DNA from: Bacillota bacterium | GTDB lineage: Bacteria; Bacillota; Dethiobacteria; DTU022; UBA8154 | Reading direction: 5' to 3' | DNA length: 46,076 nucleotides | Assembly (NCBI GenBank): GCA_012798755.1 | Contig: JAAZMP010000151.1 | Coordinates: 1-46,076, forward strand | In this document: positions 1,300 through 42,973 of the stretch, piece after piece | How positions within the stretch are numbered: position 1 is the first letter of the stretch | Layout: each line of letters begins with the position of its first letter | The notes under the pieces: generated by a model | Databases searched by the model: none | What the model saw: only the letters and a program-made list of their open reading frames with translations | Told to the model about the DNA's origin: nothing | Translations under genes and position numbers: made by a program

Positions 1300-1328
1300 T
1301 TGCTGGGGCACAAGAACCTTATTATAAT
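1300..1328 (+). promoter_or_regulatory. Sigma-A promoter of the Y-family polymerase
   Basis: TTGCTG (-35, 1300-1305), a 17-base spacer and a perfect TATAAT (-10, 1323-1328) face the polymerase gene. Transcription would start near 1335, inside the LexA-type box that follows. This supports a translation start downstream of 1335. Confidence 0.7.
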
Positions 1329-1336
1329 AACACTAT

Positions 1337-1350
1337 AGAACATCAGTTCG
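1337..1350 (+). promoter_or_regulatory. LexA (DinR) operator, SOS box
   Basis: The box contains a perfect GAAC-N4-GTTC core (1338-1349), the hallmark of Bacillus-type LexA operators with consensus CGAAC-N4-GTTCG. It starts eight bases after the -10 hexamer, so a bound repressor would cover the transcription start. The gene that follows is a translesion polymerase, a classical SOS target. Confidence 0.72.
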
Positions 1351-5759: not shown

Positions 5760-6701
5760 TTATCTCCCCTCTTCAAAATAGCGATGATAAATCTCATCCA
5801 AACCATAATCATGTTGACTTAAGTGAGTCAGGCGGGCACCATGCTTTGTAATAATGCCCGCAATTTCTGCACCTATGTGCTGTTGACAGGAAATCAATAA
5901 ACGTTTCTGGCTGTAATCGACCCTTGTCACATATTGGTTTGCTTCTATAGCGGAAATAAGCTGCTCATCGATGGGTTCCACTTCCACCTCCAGCCGGATA
6001 GGATCGCTTTTAAACAAATTGTAACCCAATTCTTTAATTGGGCCCACGGCGATTAATTTTCCCTCAACGAAAAGCCCTACCCGGTCACAGATTTGTTGCA
6101 CCTGGTAAAGGTGGTGTGAGGACAGTAAAACAGTCATATTTCTTTCCTGGCTTAGTTGTTTAATCAATGCCAACAGTTCCCTTACCCCTTCAGGATCGAT
6201 GCCGCTTGTGGGTTCGTCCAAAACAATCACTTCCGGTTCCTTGATCAGTATATCTGCTAGACCCAGACGCTGTTTCATACCCCGGGAATAGGTTTGCACC
6301 TTATCATAAGCCCTCGAAGTAAGATCCACCTGTTCAAGCAGGAGTTTAGCCCTTTCTTCAGCAACAGAGCTATCAACACCATTAAGCGCCGCCGTGTAAA
6401 GAAGATTATCCAAACCGCTTAAATTTTCATAGAAACCCACTTCATCGGGTAGATAACCCACCTTTTCTTTAACCAACAAAGGCTGAAAAGTAGGATCAAC
6501 CCCGCAAACCTCAGCCTTTCCTGAAGTCGGTTCCGATAACCCCAACAGCATCAAAATAGTTGTAGTTTTTCCGGCTCCATTAGGTCCCAACAGCCCAAAT
6601 ATTTCGCCGCGTTGAATAGATAATGTCAACTGATCTACAGCTGTTAGCTGGCCGTATTTTTTGGTTAACCCATCCAACTTAATAATTTTTTCCTTTGCCA
6701 T
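5760..6701 (-). CDS. ABC transporter ATP-binding protein
   Basis: 313 residues. Walker A LLGPNGAGKTT, the Q-loop region, the signature SRGMKQRLGLAD and Walker B VIVLDEPTSG followed by the switch histidine in LLSSHH are all intact. The C-terminal 80 residues form the regulatory extension common in CcmA/NatA-type subunits of ABC-2 exporters. The start is ATG 6701, preceded by GGGAGG and five bases from the NEW3 gene. A longer open frame up to 6788 overlaps that gene and is not needed. It powers the permease encoded next. Confidence 0.93.
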   Translation of the reverse strand: MAKEKIIKLDGLTKKYGQLTAVDQLTLSIQRGEIFGLLGPNGAGKTTTILMLLGLSEPTSGKAEVCGVDPTFQPLLVKEKVGYLPDEVGFYENLSGLDNLLYTAALNGVDSSVAEERAKLLLEQVDLTSRAYDKVQTYSRGMKQRLGLADILIKEPEVIVLDEPTSGIDPEGVRELLALIKQLSQERNMTVLLSSHHLYQVQQICDRVGLFVEGKLIAVGPIKELGYNLFKSDPIRLEVEVEPIDEQLISAIEANQYVTRVDYSQKRLLISCQQHIGAEIAGIITKHGARLTHLSQHDYGLDEIYHRYFEEGR

Positions 6702-6706
6702 TGCTA

Positions 6707-7888
6707 TTATTGCCTCCCGTATCGTTGGAAAAGATAATAGATTCCTGCGGCTACCAGAACAATAATTATTACACCAACCCAACCCCAAAGAGCAGAGGTC
6801 TTAACCATTATGCGAAAGTCGGCGTTACTGGATGCTTCGGGCGCTTGAGCCTTAATGTTGACGACATAATCACCGGCGATAGCCTTATCACTTGTCTTGA
6901 TGTAGGCATTCATGGTTGTCGATTCGCCGGGTAGCAGGGAACCTATGCTTTCCGGTTCAAACCTTACTTCCCAGTCAACGGGTGCAGTTTGGCTCAGTTT
7001 GATATCGTTAAGTTCTGCTGAACCGGTATTGTACAGCTCCAGTTCAACCATTTTTTCCCTGCCGGCGATAATATCTGTACTTAGCCTGCCGGTAGGAGTG
7101 GTAAGTTCCATTTTATAAGTTCCCGTAATATTAACCTCCAACTCAGCTTCCGCAGCAGATGTACCCGCCTGCGCTTTTACGGGGATAACATAAGTTCCGG
7201 CTTCGATTTCAGCTGGAGGTGTAATAGCCACACTGACATCCTGGGTCGAATTGGCTTCTACCTTTACGGAGGTAACTTTCTTTGCAGAAACCTCAAAGGT
7301 GACATCCCACCCGCGTGATGCAGCAGAAGAAAGAGCATAAAGCTGTTCCTCGGCAGTACGGTTTCTTAAAGTCAGACGGTAATTAAAAGTAGACTCCGCA
7401 TCGCCTTGCATACTTGGTTGATCCACATCCAGTTCTGTTTTGAAGGTGCCATGTTCAGTTACTTCAATCGCGATAGGCAAAACACTAGTTCCGCCACTGC
7501 TGTCTGTAGCACGGATCGCAAAGGAATAGTTCCCTTTTTCTACTTGCAGGGGCACTTCGATCTGCAGATTGAAATTTTCCTCATCCCGGGGCTTAATCGA
7601 GAGTTTACTGATACTCCAGCCTCCTGAAGTAAGGTTTGCCTCCCAACCTTCCGGCTGTTCGGTTATCTGCAACGATACCTGTTGTATGGAGTTGCTGTTA
7701 TTAATAATATCAACATTATAATTTACTAATTCGCCCGGTGTGACAGCCACCCCTGCATATTTTGTAAACAGCGATACGCTGCCGTTTGCTGCCGATGCCG
7801 GCATAGCAGGAAGTAGACCCCCCCCTATTAAGATCAACAATAGTGTTAGCGTAACAATGTTTTTCTGTAAAGAGCGTTTCTTGTTCAT
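6707..7888 (-). CDS. Membrane-anchored NEW3-domain protein (COG1470-like) of the ABC operon
   Basis: 393 residues. A signal peptide (residues 1-33, ending LPAMPASAANG) and one C-terminal helix (WGWVGVIIIVLVAAGIYYLF) with a short basic tail place the bulk outside the cell. Three to four beta-sandwich repeats of about 110 residues carry NEW3-like motifs such as GWEANLTSG, GWDVTFEVS and DWEVRFEPESIGSLLPGEST. NEW3 domains are Ig-like folds found beside ABC-2 transporters. The start follows GGAGG at good spacing. It heads the NEW3-ATPase-permease operon and diverges from the ECF sigma gene. It may be a surface receptor, scaffold or envelope-stress sensor; the ligand is unknown. Confidence 0.82.
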   Translation of the reverse strand: MNKKRSLQKNIVTLTLLLILIGGGLLPAMPASAANGSVSLFTKYAGVAVTPGELVNYNVDIINNSNSIQQVSLQITEQPEGWEANLTSGGWSISKLSIKPRDEENFNLQIEVPLQVEKGNYSFAIRATDSSGGTSVLPIAIEVTEHGTFKTELDVDQPSMQGDAESTFNYRLTLRNRTAEEQLYALSSAASRGWDVTFEVSAKKVTSVKVEANSTQDVSVAITPPAEIEAGTYVIPVKAQAGTSAAEAELEVNITGTYKMELTTPTGRLSTDIIAGREKMVELELYNTGSAELNDIKLSQTAPVDWEVRFEPESIGSLLPGESTTMNAYIKTSDKAIAGDYVVNIKAQAPEASSNADFRIMVKTSALWGWVGVIIIVLVAAGIYYLFQRYGRQ

Positions 7889-31268: not shown

Positions 31269-31979
31269 TTACCAGAAGAATGCATACCACTCCCAAATTT
31301 CCACACCCCAAAAATTTACTAAAAAAAACCCCAAAGAAAGAAAAGGAGCAAAAGCCAGAGAATCCTTCAAAGTTTTCCTTCCGGACAAGAGCAGCAGTGC
31401 CCCTGCCACCGCCCCCAGAATAAAGGAGATTAAAAAAACAACTAGTACATAGGGCCACCCCACAGCAAAACCCAGCACCGCCATTAACTTGATATCGCCC
31501 CCACCCATGCCACCCCTGCTTAATAAAGCAATGACATAGAAAAGAGCTCCTCCGGCCAAAAACCCTACCATCACAGATTCCAAAGGGAGATAGGGATCAA
31601 TTAACTGCCACAAAAAAAGCCATGCAAAAAGGCCAAGAAGAAAACGGTTGGGGATAATCCCGGCTCTAAAATCTATAACCGAAATAACAAGCAGCAGTCC
31701 CAGCACGACTACATATTTAAAAAAGTTAGGTGTAAAACCAAAAAAACAGTAGCATGTTGTAAAAACAACGGCGGAAGCAAGCTCTACCAATGGAAAACAG
31801 CGCAAGCGAAACCCCGTTTTTTTTATTTTGCTTAAAAAGGAAAAGATCTCCCCTGCCTCAAACAATTTACGGAACGATATTCCCTGTCGATAAACGGATG
31901 CGATTGTCCTTATAAAATTACCGGCAATAATTCCGGACAAAAAAACAACTAAGAAAATAAAACTTTCCCTTAAATGCAC
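31269..31979 (-). CDS. Prepilin peptidase (A24 family) without zinc-binding cysteines
   Basis: 236 residues, about seven helices. The two catalytic aspartates are present in VIDFRAGIIPNR and GGMGGGDIKLMA. The cytoplasmic loop between helices 1 and 2 normally carries two C-x2-C pairs; here it holds a single Cys (RCFPLVEL). The domain of the bifunctional peptidase/methylase thus looks degenerate or simplified. GTG 31979 follows AAGGGGT with six-base spacing; an open frame further upstream to 32072 includes an A-rich tandem repeat and is unlikely coding. It heads the pilus operon. Confidence 0.88.
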   Translation of the reverse strand: MHLRESFIFLVVFLSGIIAGNFIRTIASVYRQGISFRKLFEAGEIFSFLSKIKKTGFRLRCFPLVELASAVVFTTCYCFFGFTPNFFKYVVVLGLLLVISVIDFRAGIIPNRFLLGLFAWLFLWQLIDPYLPLESVMVGFLAGGALFYVIALLSRGGMGGGDIKLMAVLGFAVGWPYVLVVFLISFILGAVAGALLLLSGRKTLKDSLAFAPFLSLGFFLVNFWGVEIWEWYAFFW

Positions 31980-32007
31980 TATTTTACCCCTTCTTGAAAA
32001 ATTCCGA

Positions 32008-32038
32008 CAAAAAACATCAAAAAACATCAAAAAACATA
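32008..32038. repeat. Three tandem copies of a ten-base A-rich unit
   Basis: The unit AAAAAACATC occurs three times in a row just upstream of the prepilin peptidase start. It could alter expression by slippage. It is short and low complexity, so chance is possible. Confidence 0.6.
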
Positions 32039-32152
32039 CCCTTAAAATGCGCACGAAAAAATGGTCAAACAAACCATTTATTCCACATAAAAGGACAAAA
32101 CCCTTTTTTGTTTTTTCCTACAAATGAAAATATAGATCTTTGCTACAAATTA

Positions 32153-32181
32153 TTGACTCTGACATGTCAGTAACATATAAT
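32153..32181 (+). promoter_or_regulatory. Promoter of the small orphan gene, with a palindrome in the spacer
   Basis: TTGACT (32153-32158), exactly 17 bases, then TATAAT (32176-32181). The spacer begins with a 12-bp perfect palindrome, CTGACATGTCAG (32159-32170). This is one of the best sigma-A promoters in the window. Confidence 0.8.
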
Positions 32182-32189
32182 AACTATAT

Positions 32190-32203
32190 CAAACGTATGT
32201 TCG
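32190..32203 (+). promoter_or_regulatory. LexA-type SOS box
   Basis: CAAACGTATGTTCG agrees with the Bacillus consensus CGAAC-R-N-R-Y-GTTCG at 13 of 14 positions; the mismatch is A for G in the left half-site. It starts eight bases after the -10 box, the same geometry as at the polymerase gene. A bound repressor would cover the transcription start. Confidence 0.6.
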
Positions 32204-32294
32204 TAAAACTGCTATAACGATTATATTTACATAAATTGGCCATAATAAAAAATATAGCATACCCTGGTATAAATTAAATACAGGAGCGTAAAAA

Positions 32295-32513
32295 ATGACG
32301 GTTCTGAATAAAGTTACAATAACCCGAAAGTTGGAACCATATTTTTTAAAAGAAAAAAACCCCAAAAGCACTATCGGACTGCTCAAGGCCGTGCGCCTGG
32401 CCTGGGAAGACATTAAAAAAAAAGAACCCGCCATAACAGGGCTCGATCTTACTGAAATTTCCTTTTCCCGCAAACAAGCGGGGGAGATAAATCTCACATT
32501 CTATTTTGAATAA
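32295..32513 (+). CDS. Small orphan protein, possibly SOS-induced
   Basis: 72 residues, no family recognised. AGGAG with eight-base spacing precedes ATG 32295. A strong promoter and a LexA-type box lie upstream. The first half is Lys-rich and helical in tendency (LEPYFLKEKNPKSTIGLLKAVRLAWEDIKKKEP); the second looks like beta strands (GLDLTEISFSRKQAGEINLTFYFE). No signal peptide or membrane helix is seen, so it is probably cytoplasmic. It faces yqeG, its stop only five bases from that gene's stop. Small SOS proteins in Firmicutes often inhibit division or aid repair, but no such homology (for example a LysM domain as in YneA) is visible. The antisense frame here has no ribosome site. Confidence 0.7.
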   Translation: MTVLNKVTITRKLEPYFLKEKNPKSTIGLLKAVRLAWEDIKKKEPAITGLDLTEISFSRKQAGEINLTFYFE

Positions 32514-32518
32514 TTGCC

Positions 32519-33025
32519 TTACTTCAAATACCCCCTGCGCCTTAAACCGCGCAGGACCAGCCTTTCCACTTTTCTCACATACATCGTCCCCAAAAATTCC
32601 CGGCGGCTCAAGGGTTGCACCAGAATAGTATATAGTCCTAAACGATTGCCTCCCAGGACATCGGTAAAAACCTGATCCCCAACAACAGCTGCTTGTGAGG
32701 GTTTAACCCCCATTAAATCAAGTGCCTTGCGGAAAGCCCGGCGGCGAGGTTTAACTGCCTTCCAAAATGCCGGAAAATCGAAAAGCTCTGAAAGATCCCG
32801 GCCACGCTGAGAATTGTTATTAGAAACGATACAGGCCCTGAAACCTATTTCCTTGATTTCTTCGATCCATTCTTCAATCTCCGGAAAAACGGTACATTCA
32901 TTCCAGGGCACTAAAGTATTATCGAGATCCAGTATAAGGCCTTTAATTCCCTTACTTTCGAGCCACTGTAAATTTATCTCGTGAATGCCTTCTACATATT
33001 GTTTAGGGCACAGATACTTCCACAT
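32519..33025 (-). CDS. YqeG-family HAD IIIA phosphatase
   Basis: 168 residues. HAD motif I GLILDLDNTLVPWNE (D33, D35), motif II IVSNNNS, motif III with KP and motif IV VVGDQVFTDVLGGNRLG. It matches YqeG/GEP4-like phosphatases; GEP4 acts on phosphatidylglycerophosphate, so a Pgp phosphatase role is possible. In Bacillus it precedes yqeH; here it stands alone. A stem GGTGGC/GCCACC with a 25-base AT loop lies just upstream. Confidence 0.9.
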   Translation of the reverse strand: MWKYLCPKQYVEGIHEINLQWLESKGIKGLILDLDNTLVPWNECTVFPEIEEWIEEIKEIGFRACIVSNNNSQRGRDLSELFDFPAFWKAVKPRRRAFRKALDLMGVKPSQAAVVGDQVFTDVLGGNRLGLYTILVQPLSRREFLGTMYVRKVERLVLRGLRRRGYLK

Positions 33026-35366: not shown

Positions 35367-38300
35367 TTATTTTAGTTCTAATACCTGGCGGCGGTCGAAA
35401 AAGTACAAGTATTTGCCTTTGACTTTTGCTTTCCGGAGTTTTTTTACGGCATGGGAGTAGAGCTCCAGCTGTTGGCGGTAGCGGTTTTTGAGGGTTTCTA
35501 TTTCTAATCCGGTGGTGTTATCTGTCTTGTAGTCGATAATCAACATCCCATCATCGTCCCATACCAGGCAGTCGATCACTCCCTGGATCAGGACACGTTC
35601 GTCACCCGGACAAATATCAGGGTAAAAATCCATGCCATCATCCAAGTTGCTGCCTAAACTACCTTCCCGGTTACAGTTTATGTTGTCTGCCGGGTTGCCT
35701 AAATCGTCTGCCTGGTTATCACCTGGGTTGTCCGCCGGATTATCGCCTGAGTTACCCGCCTGGGTGCCGGCGCTTTCAGGCCAGTCCGGGTAGACCTCTT
35801 TTGCGGGCAAAATCATGCTAAAAGGGATTTCCCGTTCAACCCGCGGGGAAGTGCAAACCTGCTGTCCCAGCGCAGTTTGGAAAAAGCCAACTATGGCTTT
35901 GGGATCTATGGCCATCTTTTCTTCTTCCGTCAAAAGTTCACGCACCACCATATCCTCCAGTTGTTCTACCACATTTCTCTCGTCTAAGGAAGGGCCAAAT
36001 TCAAGGTGCTGCATAACGGTATGATAGGCCGTCCCCCTTTCTGCAGGGGTAAGACCGCCTTTCCCCAGAAAACGGGGGCGCACACCTTGCATGCTCAACA
36101 AAACCGGTGTTTTAAACCAAGGGGCCTCTGTAGCATCCTCACCGGCCAAACCGGCTGACAATAGTTTGCCTAATTCGGTAACGGACATTTTAGCAAAATG
36201 ATCTTGCGCAGCCGGGTAAGGATAGCGCCAGGAAAGACGGCGGGAAACCTCTTCCGCCCATTTCGTACTCAACGGGACAGGTTTCAGATGCAAAACATTT
36301 TCCTGCCACCTTCTCTTTGGACCTTCTTCCTGTGCAGTATCAGTGCTGCCAATAATATCCTGGGGATAAAGAACCTGTATATTCCATGAAGAAGACTCTT
36401 TCTCTTTTAGATACCGATTCTGCCCTTTTTCTGCCTGAAGTTCATGTAGCACGGCAGCCTGGGGATGCCGCAGTAATGCCGGCCCGATCCAGTCCAAAAA
36501 ATTCCTGACCCCGGCACGGTAGTAAGATGGTAATAGCCACTGTTCACTCCGGGAAAAGGCCTCCCAATCGAGTACTTTTTTGCCCATATCTTTTACTGAA
36601 GCAACCAAGATTAGTTTTTCTTTTGCCCGCGTTAGGGCTACATAAAGAACACGCATCTCCTCGGCCAACATTTCTTGTAAAAGACGGCTTTCCAAAGCAA
36701 ACCAGGGTAAAGTGGGATAGACCAGGCGTAATTCGGTGTCCACAAATTTCGGTCCAAAACCCAGTTCCTTATGCAGTAAAAAATTTTGCTGCATATCACG
36801 AAAATTAAATTTTTTGGCCAACCCAGCTACAAAGACCACGGGAAATTCCAGGCCTTTACTTTTATGCACGGTAATGATACGCACCACATTTTCCTGTTCG
36901 CCGAGTGCCCGCGCCGCCTCCAGGTCACCGCCTCTTTCTTTAAGTTTTTCGATGAAGCGTAAGAAACGAAACAGCCCCCGTAAAGAGGCAGCCTCATACT
37001 GGCGAGCGCGATCGTATAGAGCCCTTAGATTGGCCTGCCTCTGGTTTCCTCCCGGCATGCCTCCTACTAAGTCATAATAACCCGTATCGCTGTAGATCTG
37101 CCAGATCAGATCAGCCAGGGAACCCTGCCGGGCCTGATCCTGCCATCTGCGTAGATCTTGCAAAAAAGACTGCAGTTTTTTCCTTATTGGATTATTACTT
37201 GTTTCAGCATCAGCACAGTAATGCTGCAAGGCTTCATAATAATTTACCCCCGGGGCGGCCGTGCGCACCTGTGCTAATTCTTCGGCACTTAGCCCCACCA
37301 ACGGTGAACGTAGCACCGCGACCAAAGGAATTTCTTGGAAAGAATTGTCGATAATCTGCAGCAGGGAAAGCATCACTTCTACCTCTATAGCCTCGAAGTA
37401 GCCCGTCCCCAGTTCTGCGTAGGCCGGTATCCCAGCAAGACGCAGCTCCTCCAAAATGGGCACGGCCAAGTTTGGAGTCGATCGCAGCAGAATAACCATA
37501 TCGCGGTACCTTACAGGGCGCTGTTTTTCCGTCTCGCGATCTAAGACAAATAATGGCTCATTTCCATCTTCCCCCAAAAGTTCCTTGATTTTTTTGGCCA
37601 GCAGACGCCCTTCCAGACTGGCCATTTCTAGTTCTTCTACAACTTCCGGCTGGGTGTAAAGCGTAGCATCGTCATCATTGTCTTCACCTTCAGCCGATAT
37701 AAAAACAGCCTCCACGGCGAAGGGGTTTTTTTCCTCCTCCGGGACAGGCGGATAGGAAGCCCCATAATATAAACGGGCTTTTTGGTCATATTCTATTTCT
37801 CCAATTTTTTCATCCATAATCTGGTTGAAAAGAAAATTCACCCCGGCCAGGATCTCGCTGCGGCTGCGAAAATTGCGCGTAAGGGCAATGCATTCTCCGG
37901 CAGTAAACCTTTCTGTAAAATTACGCATTTTGCGCAAAAAAAGTTCCGGTTCAGCTAGGCGAAAACGATAAATACTCTGCTTGACATCCCCAACCATGAA
38001 AAGGTTCCCCCCTGGTCCCGGCCGGGAAACAAGGTTCAATATCGCCTCCTGCACCAGGTTTATGTCCTGATACTCATCTACCAATACCCCGGCAAATTTC
38101 TTTCTGTACTCCAAAGCAGCCTCTGAAGGCTGCAGAGAATCCGGCGCAGTATCAGGCTGGCTCAAAATCTGGAGGGCATAGTGTTCCAAGTCAGAAAAAT
38201 CGGCAAATCCCTTTTCACTTTTCGCCTCGCGGTAACGTTCCCCAAAAGAAAGAACGAGATCCACAAGGGCCTCCAGCAAAGGAACCAGCCGTTTCAAATC

Positions 38301-39332
38301 TTCCAGCTGTTCGTCCAAAGGCCGCTGAAAAAGTTCTTCCTTAATCTTTTTTAGTTCTGCCTTACAATTATCCCGCATTTTAGTTGCCTGATTTTTTAAA
38401 AGAGGATCATATAGATCGCCGGTGCAGGAAGAAAATCTACCGAAAACGGGCTCCTGCAAGGCCATAAACAAATCCTGCCACGAATTGGAATAGTAAATTT
38501 CTCTTATTTCTTTAACTGTTTCAAGGGACGCACGCAGACTTTCTTCGTAAGGTGCCGGACCCCGGGGCATTTGGGCAATTTTCACGGCCTCCTGCAGCTG
38601 CCCCATGATACTTTCCAACCGCAGGCCGCATTTCCACAGCAGTTCCTGTACCCAAGGGTTTTGCTCCAATTCGGCGACATCCTCGATGCGGAAGGCATCC
38701 ACATTTTTTTGCAACCAGGCAGCAGGTTGGGTATGGCTCCTGGAAAAATCATAAAGTCGCCGCACCAGCAACTGTAAAGGGTTGTCTCCACGATCACTGC
38801 TATAAATATCCACCAGGCGGTAAAAGGGGCTTTCCGCCTCTTCATTATCATAATATTCCTCCAGAACTTCTTCCAAAACCTCCTGTCGCAAAAGTTCGGC
38901 CTCTGTTTCATCCAGAACCCTAAAAGAAGGATTCAAATCCTGCAGGTAATAATAGTTTTTAATTACTTCCAGGCAAAAAGAATGGACGGTGCTTATCGAA
39001 GCCTTGTTAAGTAACAGCAGCTGGCGTCGCAAATGAGTAAGATACGGCTTTTCTTTAATAGCCTTCTCCAAAGCCACACCGATGCGTTGTTTCATTTCCG
39101 CTGCAGCGGCGTTGGTGAAAGTAACAACCAAGAGCCGATCTATGTCTACGGGGGCATCCTCATCACTGATCATTTGCAGTACACGTTCCACCAGCACCCT
39201 GGTTTTTCCCGAACCGGCACCGGCTGTCACCAGGGCGTTTTCGCCCCGGAAAGCAATAGCCCGCCACTGTTCTTCCGTCCAGATACTGCCTTCTGGTTTA
39301 GGCGGAATTTCAAACGGTTTACCGTGTGTCAT
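35367..39332 (-). CDS. addA: ATP-dependent helicase/nuclease subunit A (AddA)
   Basis: 1321 residues, slightly long. UvrD-type helicase motifs: TEEQWRAIAFRGENALVTAGAGSGKTRVLVERV (Q motif, Walker A), VDEYQDINLVQEAIL (Walker B), GDVKQSIYRFR, TRNFRSR, HKSKGLEFPVVFVAGL and YVALTRAKEKLILV. The C-terminal RecB-type nuclease has IIDYKTD. With AddB it processes double-strand breaks and regulates at Chi. An Asn/Asp/Gly-rich imperfect repeat (SGDNPADNPGDNQADD and on) sits inside the nuclease domain, encoded near 35650-35775. ATG 39332 follows AAGGAGG and overlaps addB by 14 bases. Confidence 0.96.
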   Translation of the reverse strand: MTHGKPFEIPPKPEGSIWTEEQWRAIAFRGENALVTAGAGSGKTRVLVERVLQMISDEDAPVDIDRLLVVTFTNAAAAEMKQRIGVALEKAIKEKPYLTHLRRQLLLLNKASISTVHSFCLEVIKNYYYLQDLNPSFRVLDETEAELLRQEVLEEVLEEYYDNEEAESPFYRLVDIYSSDRGDNPLQLLVRRLYDFSRSHTQPAAWLQKNVDAFRIEDVAELEQNPWVQELLWKCGLRLESIMGQLQEAVKIAQMPRGPAPYEESLRASLETVKEIREIYYSNSWQDLFMALQEPVFGRFSSCTGDLYDPLLKNQATKMRDNCKAELKKIKEELFQRPLDEQLEDLKRLVPLLEALVDLVLSFGERYREAKSEKGFADFSDLEHYALQILSQPDTAPDSLQPSEAALEYRKKFAGVLVDEYQDINLVQEAILNLVSRPGPGGNLFMVGDVKQSIYRFRLAEPELFLRKMRNFTERFTAGECIALTRNFRSRSEILAGVNFLFNQIMDEKIGEIEYDQKARLYYGASYPPVPEEEKNPFAVEAVFISAEGEDNDDDATLYTQPEVVEELEMASLEGRLLAKKIKELLGEDGNEPLFVLDRETEKQRPVRYRDMVILLRSTPNLAVPILEELRLAGIPAYAELGTGYFEAIEVEVMLSLLQIIDNSFQEIPLVAVLRSPLVGLSAEELAQVRTAAPGVNYYEALQHYCADAETSNNPIRKKLQSFLQDLRRWQDQARQGSLADLIWQIYSDTGYYDLVGGMPGGNQRQANLRALYDRARQYEAASLRGLFRFLRFIEKLKERGGDLEAARALGEQENVVRIITVHKSKGLEFPVVFVAGLAKKFNFRDMQQNFLLHKELGFGPKFVDTELRLVYPTLPWFALESRLLQEMLAEEMRVLYVALTRAKEKLILVASVKDMGKKVLDWEAFSRSEQWLLPSYYRAGVRNFLDWIGPALLRHPQAAVLHELQAEKGQNRYLKEKESSSWNIQVLYPQDIIGSTDTAQEEGPKRRWQENVLHLKPVPLSTKWAEEVSRRLSWRYPYPAAQDHFAKMSVTELGKLLSAGLAGEDATEAPWFKTPVLLSMQGVRPRFLGKGGLTPAERGTAYHTVMQHLEFGPSLDERNVVEQLEDMVVRELLTEEEKMAIDPKAIVGFFQTALGQQVCTSPRVEREIPFSMILPAKEVYPDWPESAGTQAGNSGDNPADNPGDNQADDLGNPADNINCNREGSLGSNLDDGMDFYPDICPGDERVLIQGVIDCLVWDDDGMLIIDYKTDNTTGLEIETLKNRYRQQLELYSHAVKKLRKAKVKGKYLYFFDRRQVLELK

Positions 39333-42300
39333 CGCCGGTTCCTCCTTCTGTACCCTGGCTTTCCCCAAGAAGTTGCCAGACTTCTTCTTTTACTAATTTT
39401 TTTAACAGGCGGTACCTATTTCCCTTCAGGGAGATATCAAACTGGCAGATCGCCTTATAGGGACAATATGTACAAGCTATGTTTTTGGCCAGGCGATAAG
39501 GGCTGATCCCTACCTCCCCTGAAATTATGGTTTTAGCGGCATCTTTGATCAGCTGGCGCATATGCGCAAACAAAAGCCTCAGTTTTTCAGCAGTTATTGT
39601 GGCGGAATTCGCGTAAAATCCGCCTTTGGCCTTGAGTGCTACGGGAATTATCTCTGAATACCCCTTTTGCAAGCTGCTGTCCATCAAGCGCACTACATCT
39701 AAATCTTCCAGCACCAACCCGGCCATTTTATATTCCTTGCGTATCTTTTGTTCAACTTCCTCCATCGTCCAAGGTTCACGGTTGCTTATCAGTGGGGTAT
39801 GGACACGAAAATAAAGTGCGCCAGCGGGCAGAACCGCTTCTTTTAGCCATGCCGGAGCCCGGGCTGACACAACATCCAGGTAAACCAGCAACTGCAGCGT
39901 CAGGCCATAAAAAACCTCCGGCAGCGAAAGCTTGGCTTTTCCGGATTTGTAATCGATCACCCGCAGGTAGGCCTGTCCCCTGCTGTCCCGCGCCAGATCC
40001 ACCCGATCAATACGCCCGATCAATTCCACCTTAAAGCCACCCTCCAATTCAAAGACAATACCAGGCAGCCCCCTTCCCGGGCCGAAGGCAAGCTCCAATC
40101 CCGCGGGCCTAAATTTACTGTGCCGGGCCTGTTCCCCCAAGATTAAAGCGGTCTGGCTCACTGTCTCTTTAAATTTTTCAGCAAGATAGCGGTTGCGGTT
40201 GGAACTTAAAAGGATCTCTTTTTGCAACCTTGGTACCAGGCGTTCTACTTCTGAAACGGCCAACTGCAAACAGCTTTCTTCATCCAATTTTCCCCAATCC
40301 AGTCCTTTTTTCTGAAGGGTCACCGCAAAATTGCGCAAGGCCGCATGGAAAAAGCGTCCGATATCCGGCAAATCCAAGCGGTAAATCTGCCTTTCCTTAA
40401 GGCGTAAACCATAGGAGAGAAAGTGAGCAAAGGGGCATTTCCGGAATTCTTCCAACCGGGAAACACTTGCCCTCAATGTTTTTCCATAAATTTGCAGGCT
40501 TGTTTCAGCCGCCAGCGGGCTTTCGCGGTTTTCGTAAAAAATCCCCCCTAAAAGCAGGCCAGCCAATTGCCGAAATGTTTTATCCCGGGCATACCAATTG
40601 TAAACTTCCCACCAAAAAGGGGGGATTTTTTCTCCCTTTTTCCAGCGGCCTAGCTGTACAGCAAGATGGGAAAGGGTTCTTCGGGGATGAGATATATACT
40701 GCAAAAAATGCTCCTCTTTTTCTTGTTCTTTTTGCTTTTCATCTTCTGCAAACTCCGGTTCAGCCGTGAGCAGTTCCTCCTGCAAGGAAGGAAACAATTC
40801 TTTTAGATGAGTAACAAGCAACGAAGGAACAAGCGCTCTGCCATCCTCATCGGCCAGGGAATAGCTTACCCGCAGGCCCTGGGAAGCACGGGTCAACACC
40901 ATGTATGTAAGGAACTGTTCATCTAGCAAGCGCCGCCGACTCCCCGGGGCCATTTCTAGCCCCCAATCGTTCAAGGCCTCCCGCTCTTCTTCGGAAAAAA
41001 TACCGTCTTCTCTGGGACGTGAGGGCAAAGCCCCATCGTTTACCCCTAAAAGAAAAACATACCGGGCTGCATCGGGCCTGCTCCTATCCACGTCGCCGAC
41101 AAAAACCTGATCCAGCGAAGGCGGGACAAGGCTCAAACGCAAAGCCTCCAACCCAGCCTCCACAATGCCGGCAAAAAGTTTCATCGAAAGTGTCTCTTCA
41201 CCCATAAGTTCCACCAGCTGGTCCATCAGTTCTACAATTCCCTTATAAACCTGCCGATGTTCCCGGACTTTTTCCGGATTGCCGTCTTTTTGGGCCAGTT
41301 TGCTCCAAAATTCTAGGCGCCCGGCAACATCTATCTGAGCCAATAGCCCGTAAAGGGCCGCTGTTTTCTCCCGGGCTGTTTTAGCCACCCGAAAATTTTC
41401 CTGAAAATCTGCCAGCGGTGTGCTCACCATTGCTCTCATTTCGTTAATCTTATCGAGAAAAGCCTTTTCACTTGCCGAAGGTTTGTCCCCTTCATGATCC
41501 TGTTCCTCCAAGGTATCCCTACGCCGGTATTCCCAAGGTTCCTCCCGTTGCCAGGCTGCAGCACCCCGGATGCCATAGGCAAGGACATAATTTTCCAGCC
41601 TGTCGGCCCATTCCCGCCATTTTGCGTTATCCTCCTCTCCCCGTTCTAAGGGAAAAAGAAATTCTGTCTTAATGCAACGAAAAACAGCCTCATAACGCCA
41701 ATTATGGTTTACCACCTCCATGGCCGAACGGATAAATTCCACCAGCGGATGATGTATAACACCACGTTTCCGATCGTGGAAAAAAGGAATCCGGTAATCG
41801 GAAAAGACAGTGGAGATAATATCCCGATAGTCATCCGGACTGCAGGCAATCACGACCATATCCCGCCAGCGGCAATCCTCATCTCTTACCAAAGCAATTA
41901 TTTCCCGGGCCAGGGATTCCACCTCACAGCGCCGGTTGGGCGCCGCCGCCAGCCGCAACGCCTCCACCCTGCACCCAAAGGGTTTAAGGGGGTAACTTTG
42001 CAAATTTTTTTCCAGGTGAACCAGGTCAGGGTTGGCCGCAAAACGAGAAGAGGTGTCTCTTTCCAGAAATATTTTTTCCACCGGGATTTTCCGCGCCCTG
42101 GCCCGCTGCTGTAATCTTTGGCAGGTTATAGCTGCCGGGTAAAAAGGATCCAGCTCATCCACCTTCTCCCCGGGAAGGCAATCCCTATCCAAGCAGATAG
42201 TAACAGTGACACGGCTGCAAAAGTTAAAAAGTTCCTCCAACACCTGGTACTCCTGGATCGTGAAACCATAAAAACCGTCTACCCAGATTTCGGCCCCTTT

Positions 42301-42900
42301 TAAGGTAGAAGATTCCGGCAACAACAAAGTCAGCAGATTCAGGTAATCCTCGGCGTCTAAGTAGTGCCCGGACAGTTCCTTTTCCGCCTCCTCCATAATG
42401 AGGATCAAATCGCCCAATTTTTCTTTAAATAAAGAAGGCAGGCCATCCTCTTCTTCCACATGTTTCCGGAAAGCATCCTTAAGCTGGGAAACATCGAGGC
42501 AGGCTCGCTTTAGTTCATTATGCAGCCGCACAAGATTGTCCAGCGCCCCTACTTGCTCCTCGGCATACCGGAAAACCTTGAGCTTGCTCCGGCATTTTTC
42601 CAAGATTTTGCGCAAAACCATGCCTTTACCGGTGTCATCAATAAAAAGCAGCTTCCCTCCCCCGGTTTCTTGCATCACCCTCCAGGCCAGGCGACGGAAA
42701 CTCAACACCTGGGCACGCATCATCCCCTCCAGCCCATGCGAGGTGGCCAGAGCATATTCTGCCTGGAAGGTAGCCTGTTCCGGAACTATGTAGACAAGGG
42801 GGCAACCGTCCGGCCGCCTTGCTATCTCCGCCGCAATTTCCCGCAGGCAAAGATCGCTTTTGCCGCTTCCGGCCCTCCCCAAAACAAGCCGTAAACCCAT
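39319..42900 (-). CDS. addB: ATP-dependent helicase/deoxyribonuclease subunit B (AddB)
   Basis: 1193 residues. Walker A LGRAGSGKSDLCLREIA at the N-terminus, an inactivated helicase scaffold, and a C-terminal RecB-type nuclease with VIDYKSGKAKL. The nuclease is held by a 4Fe-4S cluster: EEFRKCPFAHFL supplies the first Cys and IACTYCPYKAICQFD the other three. AddB recognises Chi. ATG 42900 has GGGGAG at seven bases; ATG 42906 is too close. It is the first gene of addBA. No LexA box is visible in the short upstream gap. Confidence 0.96.
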   Translation of the reverse strand: MGLRLVLGRAGSGKSDLCLREIAAEIARRPDGCPLVYIVPEQATFQAEYALATSHGLEGMMRAQVLSFRRLAWRVMQETGGGKLLFIDDTGKGMVLRKILEKCRSKLKVFRYAEEQVGALDNLVRLHNELKRACLDVSQLKDAFRKHVEEEDGLPSLFKEKLGDLILIMEEAEKELSGHYLDAEDYLNLLTLLLPESSTLKGAEIWVDGFYGFTIQEYQVLEELFNFCSRVTVTICLDRDCLPGEKVDELDPFYPAAITCQRLQQRARARKIPVEKIFLERDTSSRFAANPDLVHLEKNLQSYPLKPFGCRVEALRLAAAPNRRCEVESLAREIIALVRDEDCRWRDMVVIACSPDDYRDIISTVFSDYRIPFFHDRKRGVIHHPLVEFIRSAMEVVNHNWRYEAVFRCIKTEFLFPLERGEEDNAKWREWADRLENYVLAYGIRGAAAWQREEPWEYRRRDTLEEQDHEGDKPSASEKAFLDKINEMRAMVSTPLADFQENFRVAKTAREKTAALYGLLAQIDVAGRLEFWSKLAQKDGNPEKVREHRQVYKGIVELMDQLVELMGEETLSMKLFAGIVEAGLEALRLSLVPPSLDQVFVGDVDRSRPDAARYVFLLGVNDGALPSRPREDGIFSEEEREALNDWGLEMAPGSRRRLLDEQFLTYMVLTRASQGLRVSYSLADEDGRALVPSLLVTHLKELFPSLQEELLTAEPEFAEDEKQKEQEKEEHFLQYISHPRRTLSHLAVQLGRWKKGEKIPPFWWEVYNWYARDKTFRQLAGLLLGGIFYENRESPLAAETSLQIYGKTLRASVSRLEEFRKCPFAHFLSYGLRLKERQIYRLDLPDIGRFFHAALRNFAVTLQKKGLDWGKLDEESCLQLAVSEVERLVPRLQKEILLSSNRNRYLAEKFKETVSQTALILGEQARHSKFRPAGLELAFGPGRGLPGIVFELEGGFKVELIGRIDRVDLARDSRGQAYLRVIDYKSGKAKLSLPEVFYGLTLQLLVYLDVVSARAPAWLKEAVLPAGALYFRVHTPLISNREPWTMEEVEQKIRKEYKMAGLVLEDLDVVRLMDSSLQKGYSEIIPVALKAKGGFYANSATITAEKLRLLFAHMRQLIKDAAKTIISGEVGISPYRLAKNIACTYCPYKAICQFDISLKGNRYRLLKKLVKEEVWQLLGESQGTEGGTGDDTR

Positions 42901-42973
42901 AACCATACTCCCCTTAAAATATTTCTAACACTTTCAAACACTTTCTTTTCAAGCCGAGCAGTACCTAAGAAAC

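What the first reader, a model, noticed from the sequence alone, without database searches (positions are those of the whole stretch)
32153..32513. A 72-residue orphan protein behind a LexA-type promoter
A near-ideal sigma-A promoter (TTGACT-N17-TATAAT) is followed at eight bases by a 13/14 match to the Bacillus SOS box, then a good SD and a 72-residue frame with no family I recognise. The arrangement is the same as at the Y-family polymerase in this window. Bacillus-type SOS regulons include small proteins that stop division or assist repair, but this one has no LysM domain or membrane helix. It may be an undescribed SOS effector.
Basis: partly seen in the sequence, partly recalled or inferred. 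Interest (0 to 1): 0.72.

Follow-up and report, generated by a model that had tools for sequence, protein, structure and literature searches.

The report
Lineage-specific small gene behind LexA promoter
A real but previously undescribed 72-residue protein, found only in a few related uncultured Bacillota, sits behind a promoter that the DNA-damage repressor LexA very probably controls, although only three of its nine known relatives keep that promoter and what the protein does is unknown.

Summary
A promoter (TTGACT-N17-TATAAT, 32153-32181) is followed after 8 bases by CAAACGTATGTTCG (32190-32203), which on the other strand matches CGAACNNNNGTTYG exactly. It is the best LexA-type site in the window (16.0 bits, 0.08 expected). 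The Y-family polymerase has the same geometry, and the genome's own lexA carries the same operator.

The 72-codon frame is a real gene: nine orthologs with pN/pS of 0.33-0.40, always beside yqeG on the opposite strand. It occurs in 9 of 98 genomes of the class, in one family, with a single origin on the YqeG tree. No library, PDB, phage, plasmid or viral search gives a relative. The model is beta-alpha-beta-beta (pLDDT 83-86) without a convincing structural match.

The LexA promoter recurs upstream of two orthologs, in the same genus (one box mismatch) and another genus (degenerate box); chance is about 0.003 per upstream region. Six of nine lack it.

LexA control is therefore well supported in silico. 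The word 'effector' is not: its function is unknown. It is not a YneA/SosA-type division inhibitor.

The parts
32153..32181 (+). P1: promoter TTGACT-N17-TATAAT
   Evidence: same layout upstream of orthologs in G001 and G009
32190..32203 (.). LexA (SOS) operator CAAACGTATGTTCG, starting 8 bases after the -10, about at the expected transcription start
   Evidence: exact CGAACNNNNGTTYG on - strand; 16.0 bits, best in window; one of only 5 exact matches in the genome
32236..32265 (+). P2: conserved promoter-like block TTGGCC-ATAATA-N10-CATACCCT, present in recognisable form in 7 of 9 orthologs
   Evidence: strict form found nowhere else in 9 genomes
32282..32286 (+). Shine-Dalgarno AGGAG
   Evidence: sequence
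32295..32513 (+). 72-codon gene for a small soluble basic (pI 9.5) beta-alpha-beta-beta protein
   Evidence: 9 orthologs; purifying selection; AlphaFold2 pLDDT 82.8
31269..32072 (-). flanking prepilin peptidase gene (A24)
   Evidence: Pfam PF01478; on the far side of the gene in most orthologous loci
32519..33025 (-). flanking yqeG (HAD phosphatase), convergent with the gene
   Evidence: TIGR01668; adjacent to an ortholog copy in all 9 genomes
1300..1350 (+). comparison site: promoter and LexA-like box of the Y-family polymerase gene with the same geometry
   Evidence: polymerase by Pfam PF00817 and NF002848

Best explanation
The gene is a lineage-specific member of the LexA (SOS) regulon. LexA bound at 32190-32203, over the start of transcription from P1, keeps P1 shut (inferred). 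DNA damage leads RecA to trigger LexA self-cleavage (established for LexA in general, not shown here). P1 then fires and the 72-residue protein rises above whatever level the nearer block P2 supplies. The product is a small soluble basic alpha/beta protein with a conserved helix (LLKAVRKALEDIKKEEP) and two C-terminal strands. It most likely works by binding another protein or assembling with itself, because it has no catalytic-looking conserved residues and no membrane segment (inferred). Its partner is unknown.
For: Exact operator and near-consensus promoter. Own lexA carries CGAACCATTGTTTG, and the same kind of box lies upstream of lexA in nearly all relatives. Promoter-plus-box layout recurs in G001 (TTGATT-N17-TATAAT-N11-CAAACACATGTGCG) and in G009 of another genus (TTGACC-N17-TATAAT-N8-CGAACATATATACG); chance is about 0.003 per 500 bases. 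The G000 and G001 promoters align, with TATATCAAAC identical. G000 is about 81% identical to its congeners in core proteins, and G003/G004 are closest to each other, so P1 fits presence at the base of the genus and one loss. The gene is real: pN/pS 0.33-0.40, fixed synteny, single origin at 97/95 support. The fold is reproducible between two models.
Against: Six of nine orthologs, including two of four in the genus, have no recognisable LexA promoter. The box in G009 has two mismatches (5.8 bits) and that in G001 one (10.1 bits). Exact boxes are not enriched in the genome over the reversed pattern (5 against 11). recA in this family has no box within one mismatch upstream, so the regulon may be small. 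No transcript, binding or phenotype data exist.
Confidence: 0.66

Rival explanations
1. The gene is mainly controlled from the nearer conserved block P2 by another regulator or sigma factor, and the LexA promoter is a secondary, decaying addition. P2 can be read as a sigma-A promoter (TTGnCn-N17/18-TAnnnT) or as a mother-cell type promoter (CATAnnnT with a spaced -35).
For: The block is recognisable in 7 of 9 orthologs, its strict core in 6, with no shuffle of 2000 exceeding 2; the LexA promoter is found in 3 of 9. All nine carriers are spore formers by SASP or SpoIVA genes.
Against: In the window P2 is at its poorest (CATACCCT), while P1 is at its best. The strict block is found nowhere else in nine genomes, which speaks against a common sigma factor site. 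The spoIVA promoters of the same genomes (AATATTGTCC-N9-CATATAAAT) have a different spacing. Family members without the gene also have sigK.
Confidence: 0.3
2. It is a small division inhibitor of the YneA/SosA kind.
For: Size and LexA-type promoter only.
Against: No membrane segment (highest 19-residue hydropathy 0.05), no LysM match, not next to lexA. The known inhibitors have a single membrane segment and usually lie beside lexA (PMC6851548).
Confidence: 0.03
3. It is a remnant of a phage or mobile element whose genes use host LexA.
For: LexA-type promoters are common on mobile elements (general knowledge); the gene appears inserted between two genes that are adjacent in relatives.
Against: No relatives in IMG/VR (pattern-based scans), phage or plasmid records. 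One stable locus in all carriers, a single origin, and purifying selection.
Confidence: 0.08
4. The box is a chance match and the promoter is ordinary.
For: Exact boxes in the genome are not more frequent than the control pattern.
Against: 0.08 sites of this score expected per window, and the promoter-box layout recurs at the ortholog in two other species.
Confidence: 0.1

Closest known systems
LexA (SOS) regulon of Bacillus and clostridia
   Same: Operator CGAACNNNNGTTYG at a sigma-A type promoter; same operator upstream of the genome's own lexA; same geometry as the Y-family polymerase gene in the window. GAACN4GTTC is given for B. subtilis, and C. difficile boxes were sought as GAACnnnnGTTT/C (PMC4234289).
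   Different: The gene itself is in no described regulon that I know of, and only three of nine orthologs keep the promoter.
SOS-induced small division inhibitors YneA, SosA, ChiZ, DivS
   Same: Small protein behind a LexA-type promoter in a Gram-positive lineage.
   Different: No membrane segment, no LysM, not beside lexA; a soluble alpha/beta fold.
Dodecin and calcium dodecin
   Same: About 70 residues with strand-helix-strand-strand order; top of the Foldseek list against the PDB.
   Different: E-values of about 0.1, TM-scores 0.28-0.39, rmsd near 5 or more; no Pfam match to any dodecin model. Not a relative on this evidence.
Alba-type nucleic-acid binding proteins
   Same: Small basic alpha/beta fold among the weak Foldseek matches (7dl8, 1nh9).
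   Different: TM-scores 0.41-0.44, E above 0.1, no sequence match.

Membership tests
LexA (SOS) regulon, Bacillus type | operator matching CGAACNNNNGTTYG | tested here: met
   exact on the - strand; 16.0 bits against a lexA-derived matrix
LexA (SOS) regulon, Bacillus type | operator placed to block a promoter of the gene | tested here: met
   8 bases after TATAAT of an 11/12 promoter reading towards the gene
LexA (SOS) regulon, Bacillus type | the genome encodes LexA that uses this operator type | tested here: met
   one lexA with CGAACCATTGTTTG upstream
LexA (SOS) regulon, Bacillus type | operator kept upstream of orthologs | tested here: inconclusive
   kept in G001 (1 mismatch) and G009 (2 mismatches), absent in the other six
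LexA (SOS) regulon, Bacillus type | LexA binding and induction by DNA damage | not testable with these tools
   needs gel shift or footprint and transcript measurement
YneA/SosA/ChiZ division inhibitors | single membrane-spanning segment | tested here: not met
   highest 19-residue hydropathy 0.05; soluble fold predicted
YneA/SosA/ChiZ division inhibitors | LysM domain (most members) | tested here: not met
   no Pfam match
YneA/SosA/ChiZ division inhibitors | gene beside lexA | tested here: not met
   lexA is on another contig, C32 against C95
Dodecin | match to the dodecin sequence family | tested here: not met
   no dodecin model among Pfam matches of any of nine orthologs up to E=10
Dodecin | dodecin fold | tested here: inconclusive
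   same element order, but TM 0.28-0.39 and E about 0.1 or worse

The most novel reading that the evidence does not exclude
A new protein family that serves as a DNA-damage-induced regulator in one uncultured Bacillota family. It arose once between yqeG and a prepilin peptidase gene and is switched by two promoters, one under LexA and one under an unidentified regulator, with the balance shifting between species.
Probability: 0.35. Interest if true: 0.55.

Novelty: new member of a known kind. Interest (0 to 1): 0.42.

Why it matters
Small lineage-specific genes under LexA are where new division inhibitors, checkpoint proteins and repair helpers have been found. This one is a clear candidate: a single origin, purifying selection, a defined locus and a testable operator. 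It also shows promoter turnover at one gene, with a LexA promoter kept in some species and another promoter-like block in most. It does not by itself reveal a new mechanism.

Tried and rejected
Pfam, NCBIfam, PHROGs, PADLOC and PDB sequence searches with the protein or its alignment gave no relative. Pattern-based searches of IMG/VR found none, nor did phage and plasmid records. I first took 35367-42906 for rpoBC; it is addA and addB, so rows labelled RpoC are AddA. I tested whether the conserved nearer block is a general sporulation promoter: its strict form occurs nowhere else in nine genomes and it does not match the spoIVA promoter spacing, so I leave its class open. One attempt to find the sigma-K type pattern upstream of sigK found nothing. 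An IQ-TREE run on concatenated proteins failed on a thread setting; pairwise identities from the same call were used instead. No Rfam match in 31900-32700. G002 of the same genus lacks the gene, but its assembly also lacks the yqeG ortholog, so its absence says nothing.

Full report
What is there. TTGACT (32153) and TATAAT (32176) are 17 bases apart; eight bases later comes CAAACGTATGTTCG (32190-32203), then AGGAG and ATG at 32295, and the frame ends at 32513. On the other strand the box is CGAACATACGTTTG, an exact CGAACNNNNGTTYG. I built a LexA matrix from 16 boxes upstream of lexA genes of the same family and its order. The site scores 16.0 bits, the best of the window, against 0.083 expected per 46 kb. 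The Y-family polymerase at the start of the window has TTGCTG-N17-TATAAT-N8-AGAACATCAGTTCG, the same geometry. In the whole 2.33 Mb genome only five exact boxes exist: this one, lexA, one upstream of a DUF1659/DUF2922 pair, and two inside genes. That count is not above the control pattern, so box frequency alone is no argument; position is.

It is a real gene. Single-sequence and profile searches find it in 9 of 98 genomes of the class, all in four genera of one family. Contigs of the same lengths appear in GTDB records titled Dethiobacter sp. SURF_39, Bacillota UBA9862 and others. Pairwise pN/pS is 0.33-0.40 and changes are fewest at codon position 2. In all nine genomes a copy lies beside yqeG on the opposite strand, in most with the A24 prepilin peptidase gene on the other side. 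In family members without it, yqeG and the peptidase are often adjacent. On a YqeG tree the carriers form one group, 97/95. G001 has a rearranged locus, with a full copy and a truncated one.

What the protein is. No sequence relative was found in any library searched. Two AlphaFold2 models agree: strand, helix, two strands, pLDDT 82.8 and 86.3. Foldseek gives nothing better than E 0.085 in the PDB, with calcium dodecin first at TM 0.30-0.37, and E 0.006 to an uncharacterised phage protein in BFVD. I do not claim a fold family. It has no membrane segment.

The regulation. Upstream of the G001 ortholog lies TTGATT-N17-TATAAT-N11-CAAACACATGTGCG, which aligns with the window's promoter. Upstream of the ortholog in G009, another genus, lies TTGACC-N17-TATAAT-N8-CGAACATATATACG. 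Markov sequences of the same composition give such a layout in about 0.3% of 500-base upstreams. So the LexA promoter is shared by three of nine orthologs and two genera, with decaying boxes in two of them. Core-protein identities put G000 outside the other three congeners, with G003 and G004 closest to each other; one loss in the G003/G004 line is the simplest history within the genus. Other genera would need further losses or a separate gain.

A second element. Between the box and the start lies TTGGCC-ATAATA-N10-CATACCCT (32236-32265). Its relatives, consensus TTGGCCATAATAA-N8-GGCATATTCT, lie near the start in G000, G001, G003, G004, G006, G009 and G010; the strict core ATAATA-N8..11-CATA is in six, while 2000 shuffles never gave more than two. 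It reads as a sigma-A promoter with poor hexamers or as a CATAnnnT mother-cell type promoter; I could not decide. A strict form (CATAATA-N8..10-CATATTCT) is found only at this gene in nine genomes. In the window it is weak.

Reading. The most likely account is a lineage-specific SOS gene with a second promoter. Shown: promoter, operator, own lexA operator, gene reality, partial conservation. Inferred: LexA binding, induction by damage, action through protein contacts. Not known: partner and phenotype. The known Gram-positive division inhibitors have a membrane segment, mostly a LysM domain, and lie beside lexA (PMC6851548); this protein has none of these. LexA is known to control unusual and sporulation-linked genes in C. 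difficile (PMC4234289, PMC4689574), so a lineage-specific target is ordinary in kind.

Noticed in passing
L139 (G000:C23:48-61): Exact LexA-type box CGAACGTAAGTTTG shortly upstream of a DUF1659-DUF2922 pair of small genes: another candidate SOS target in the same genome.
   Followed up: partly
L058 (G001:C108), 2077-2181 and 6628-6840: Two copies of the gene: a truncated one beside yqeG and a full one 4.4 kb away, a local duplication or rearrangement.
   Followed up: partly
L044-L055: No LexA box within one mismatch upstream of recA in the family (one order member, L053, has a near match), so recA may lie outside the LexA regulon here.
   Followed up: partly
window 32236-32265 and its counterparts upstream of six orthologs: Conserved block TTGGCCATAATAA-N8-GGCATATTCT, whose strict form is found only at this gene in nine genomes; regulator or sigma factor unknown.
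   Followed up: partly
L104-L111: Strongly conserved spoIVA promoter GTAATATTGTCC-N9-CATATAAATATAACGTTA across the family, a good sigma-E reference for this lineage.
   Followed up: no
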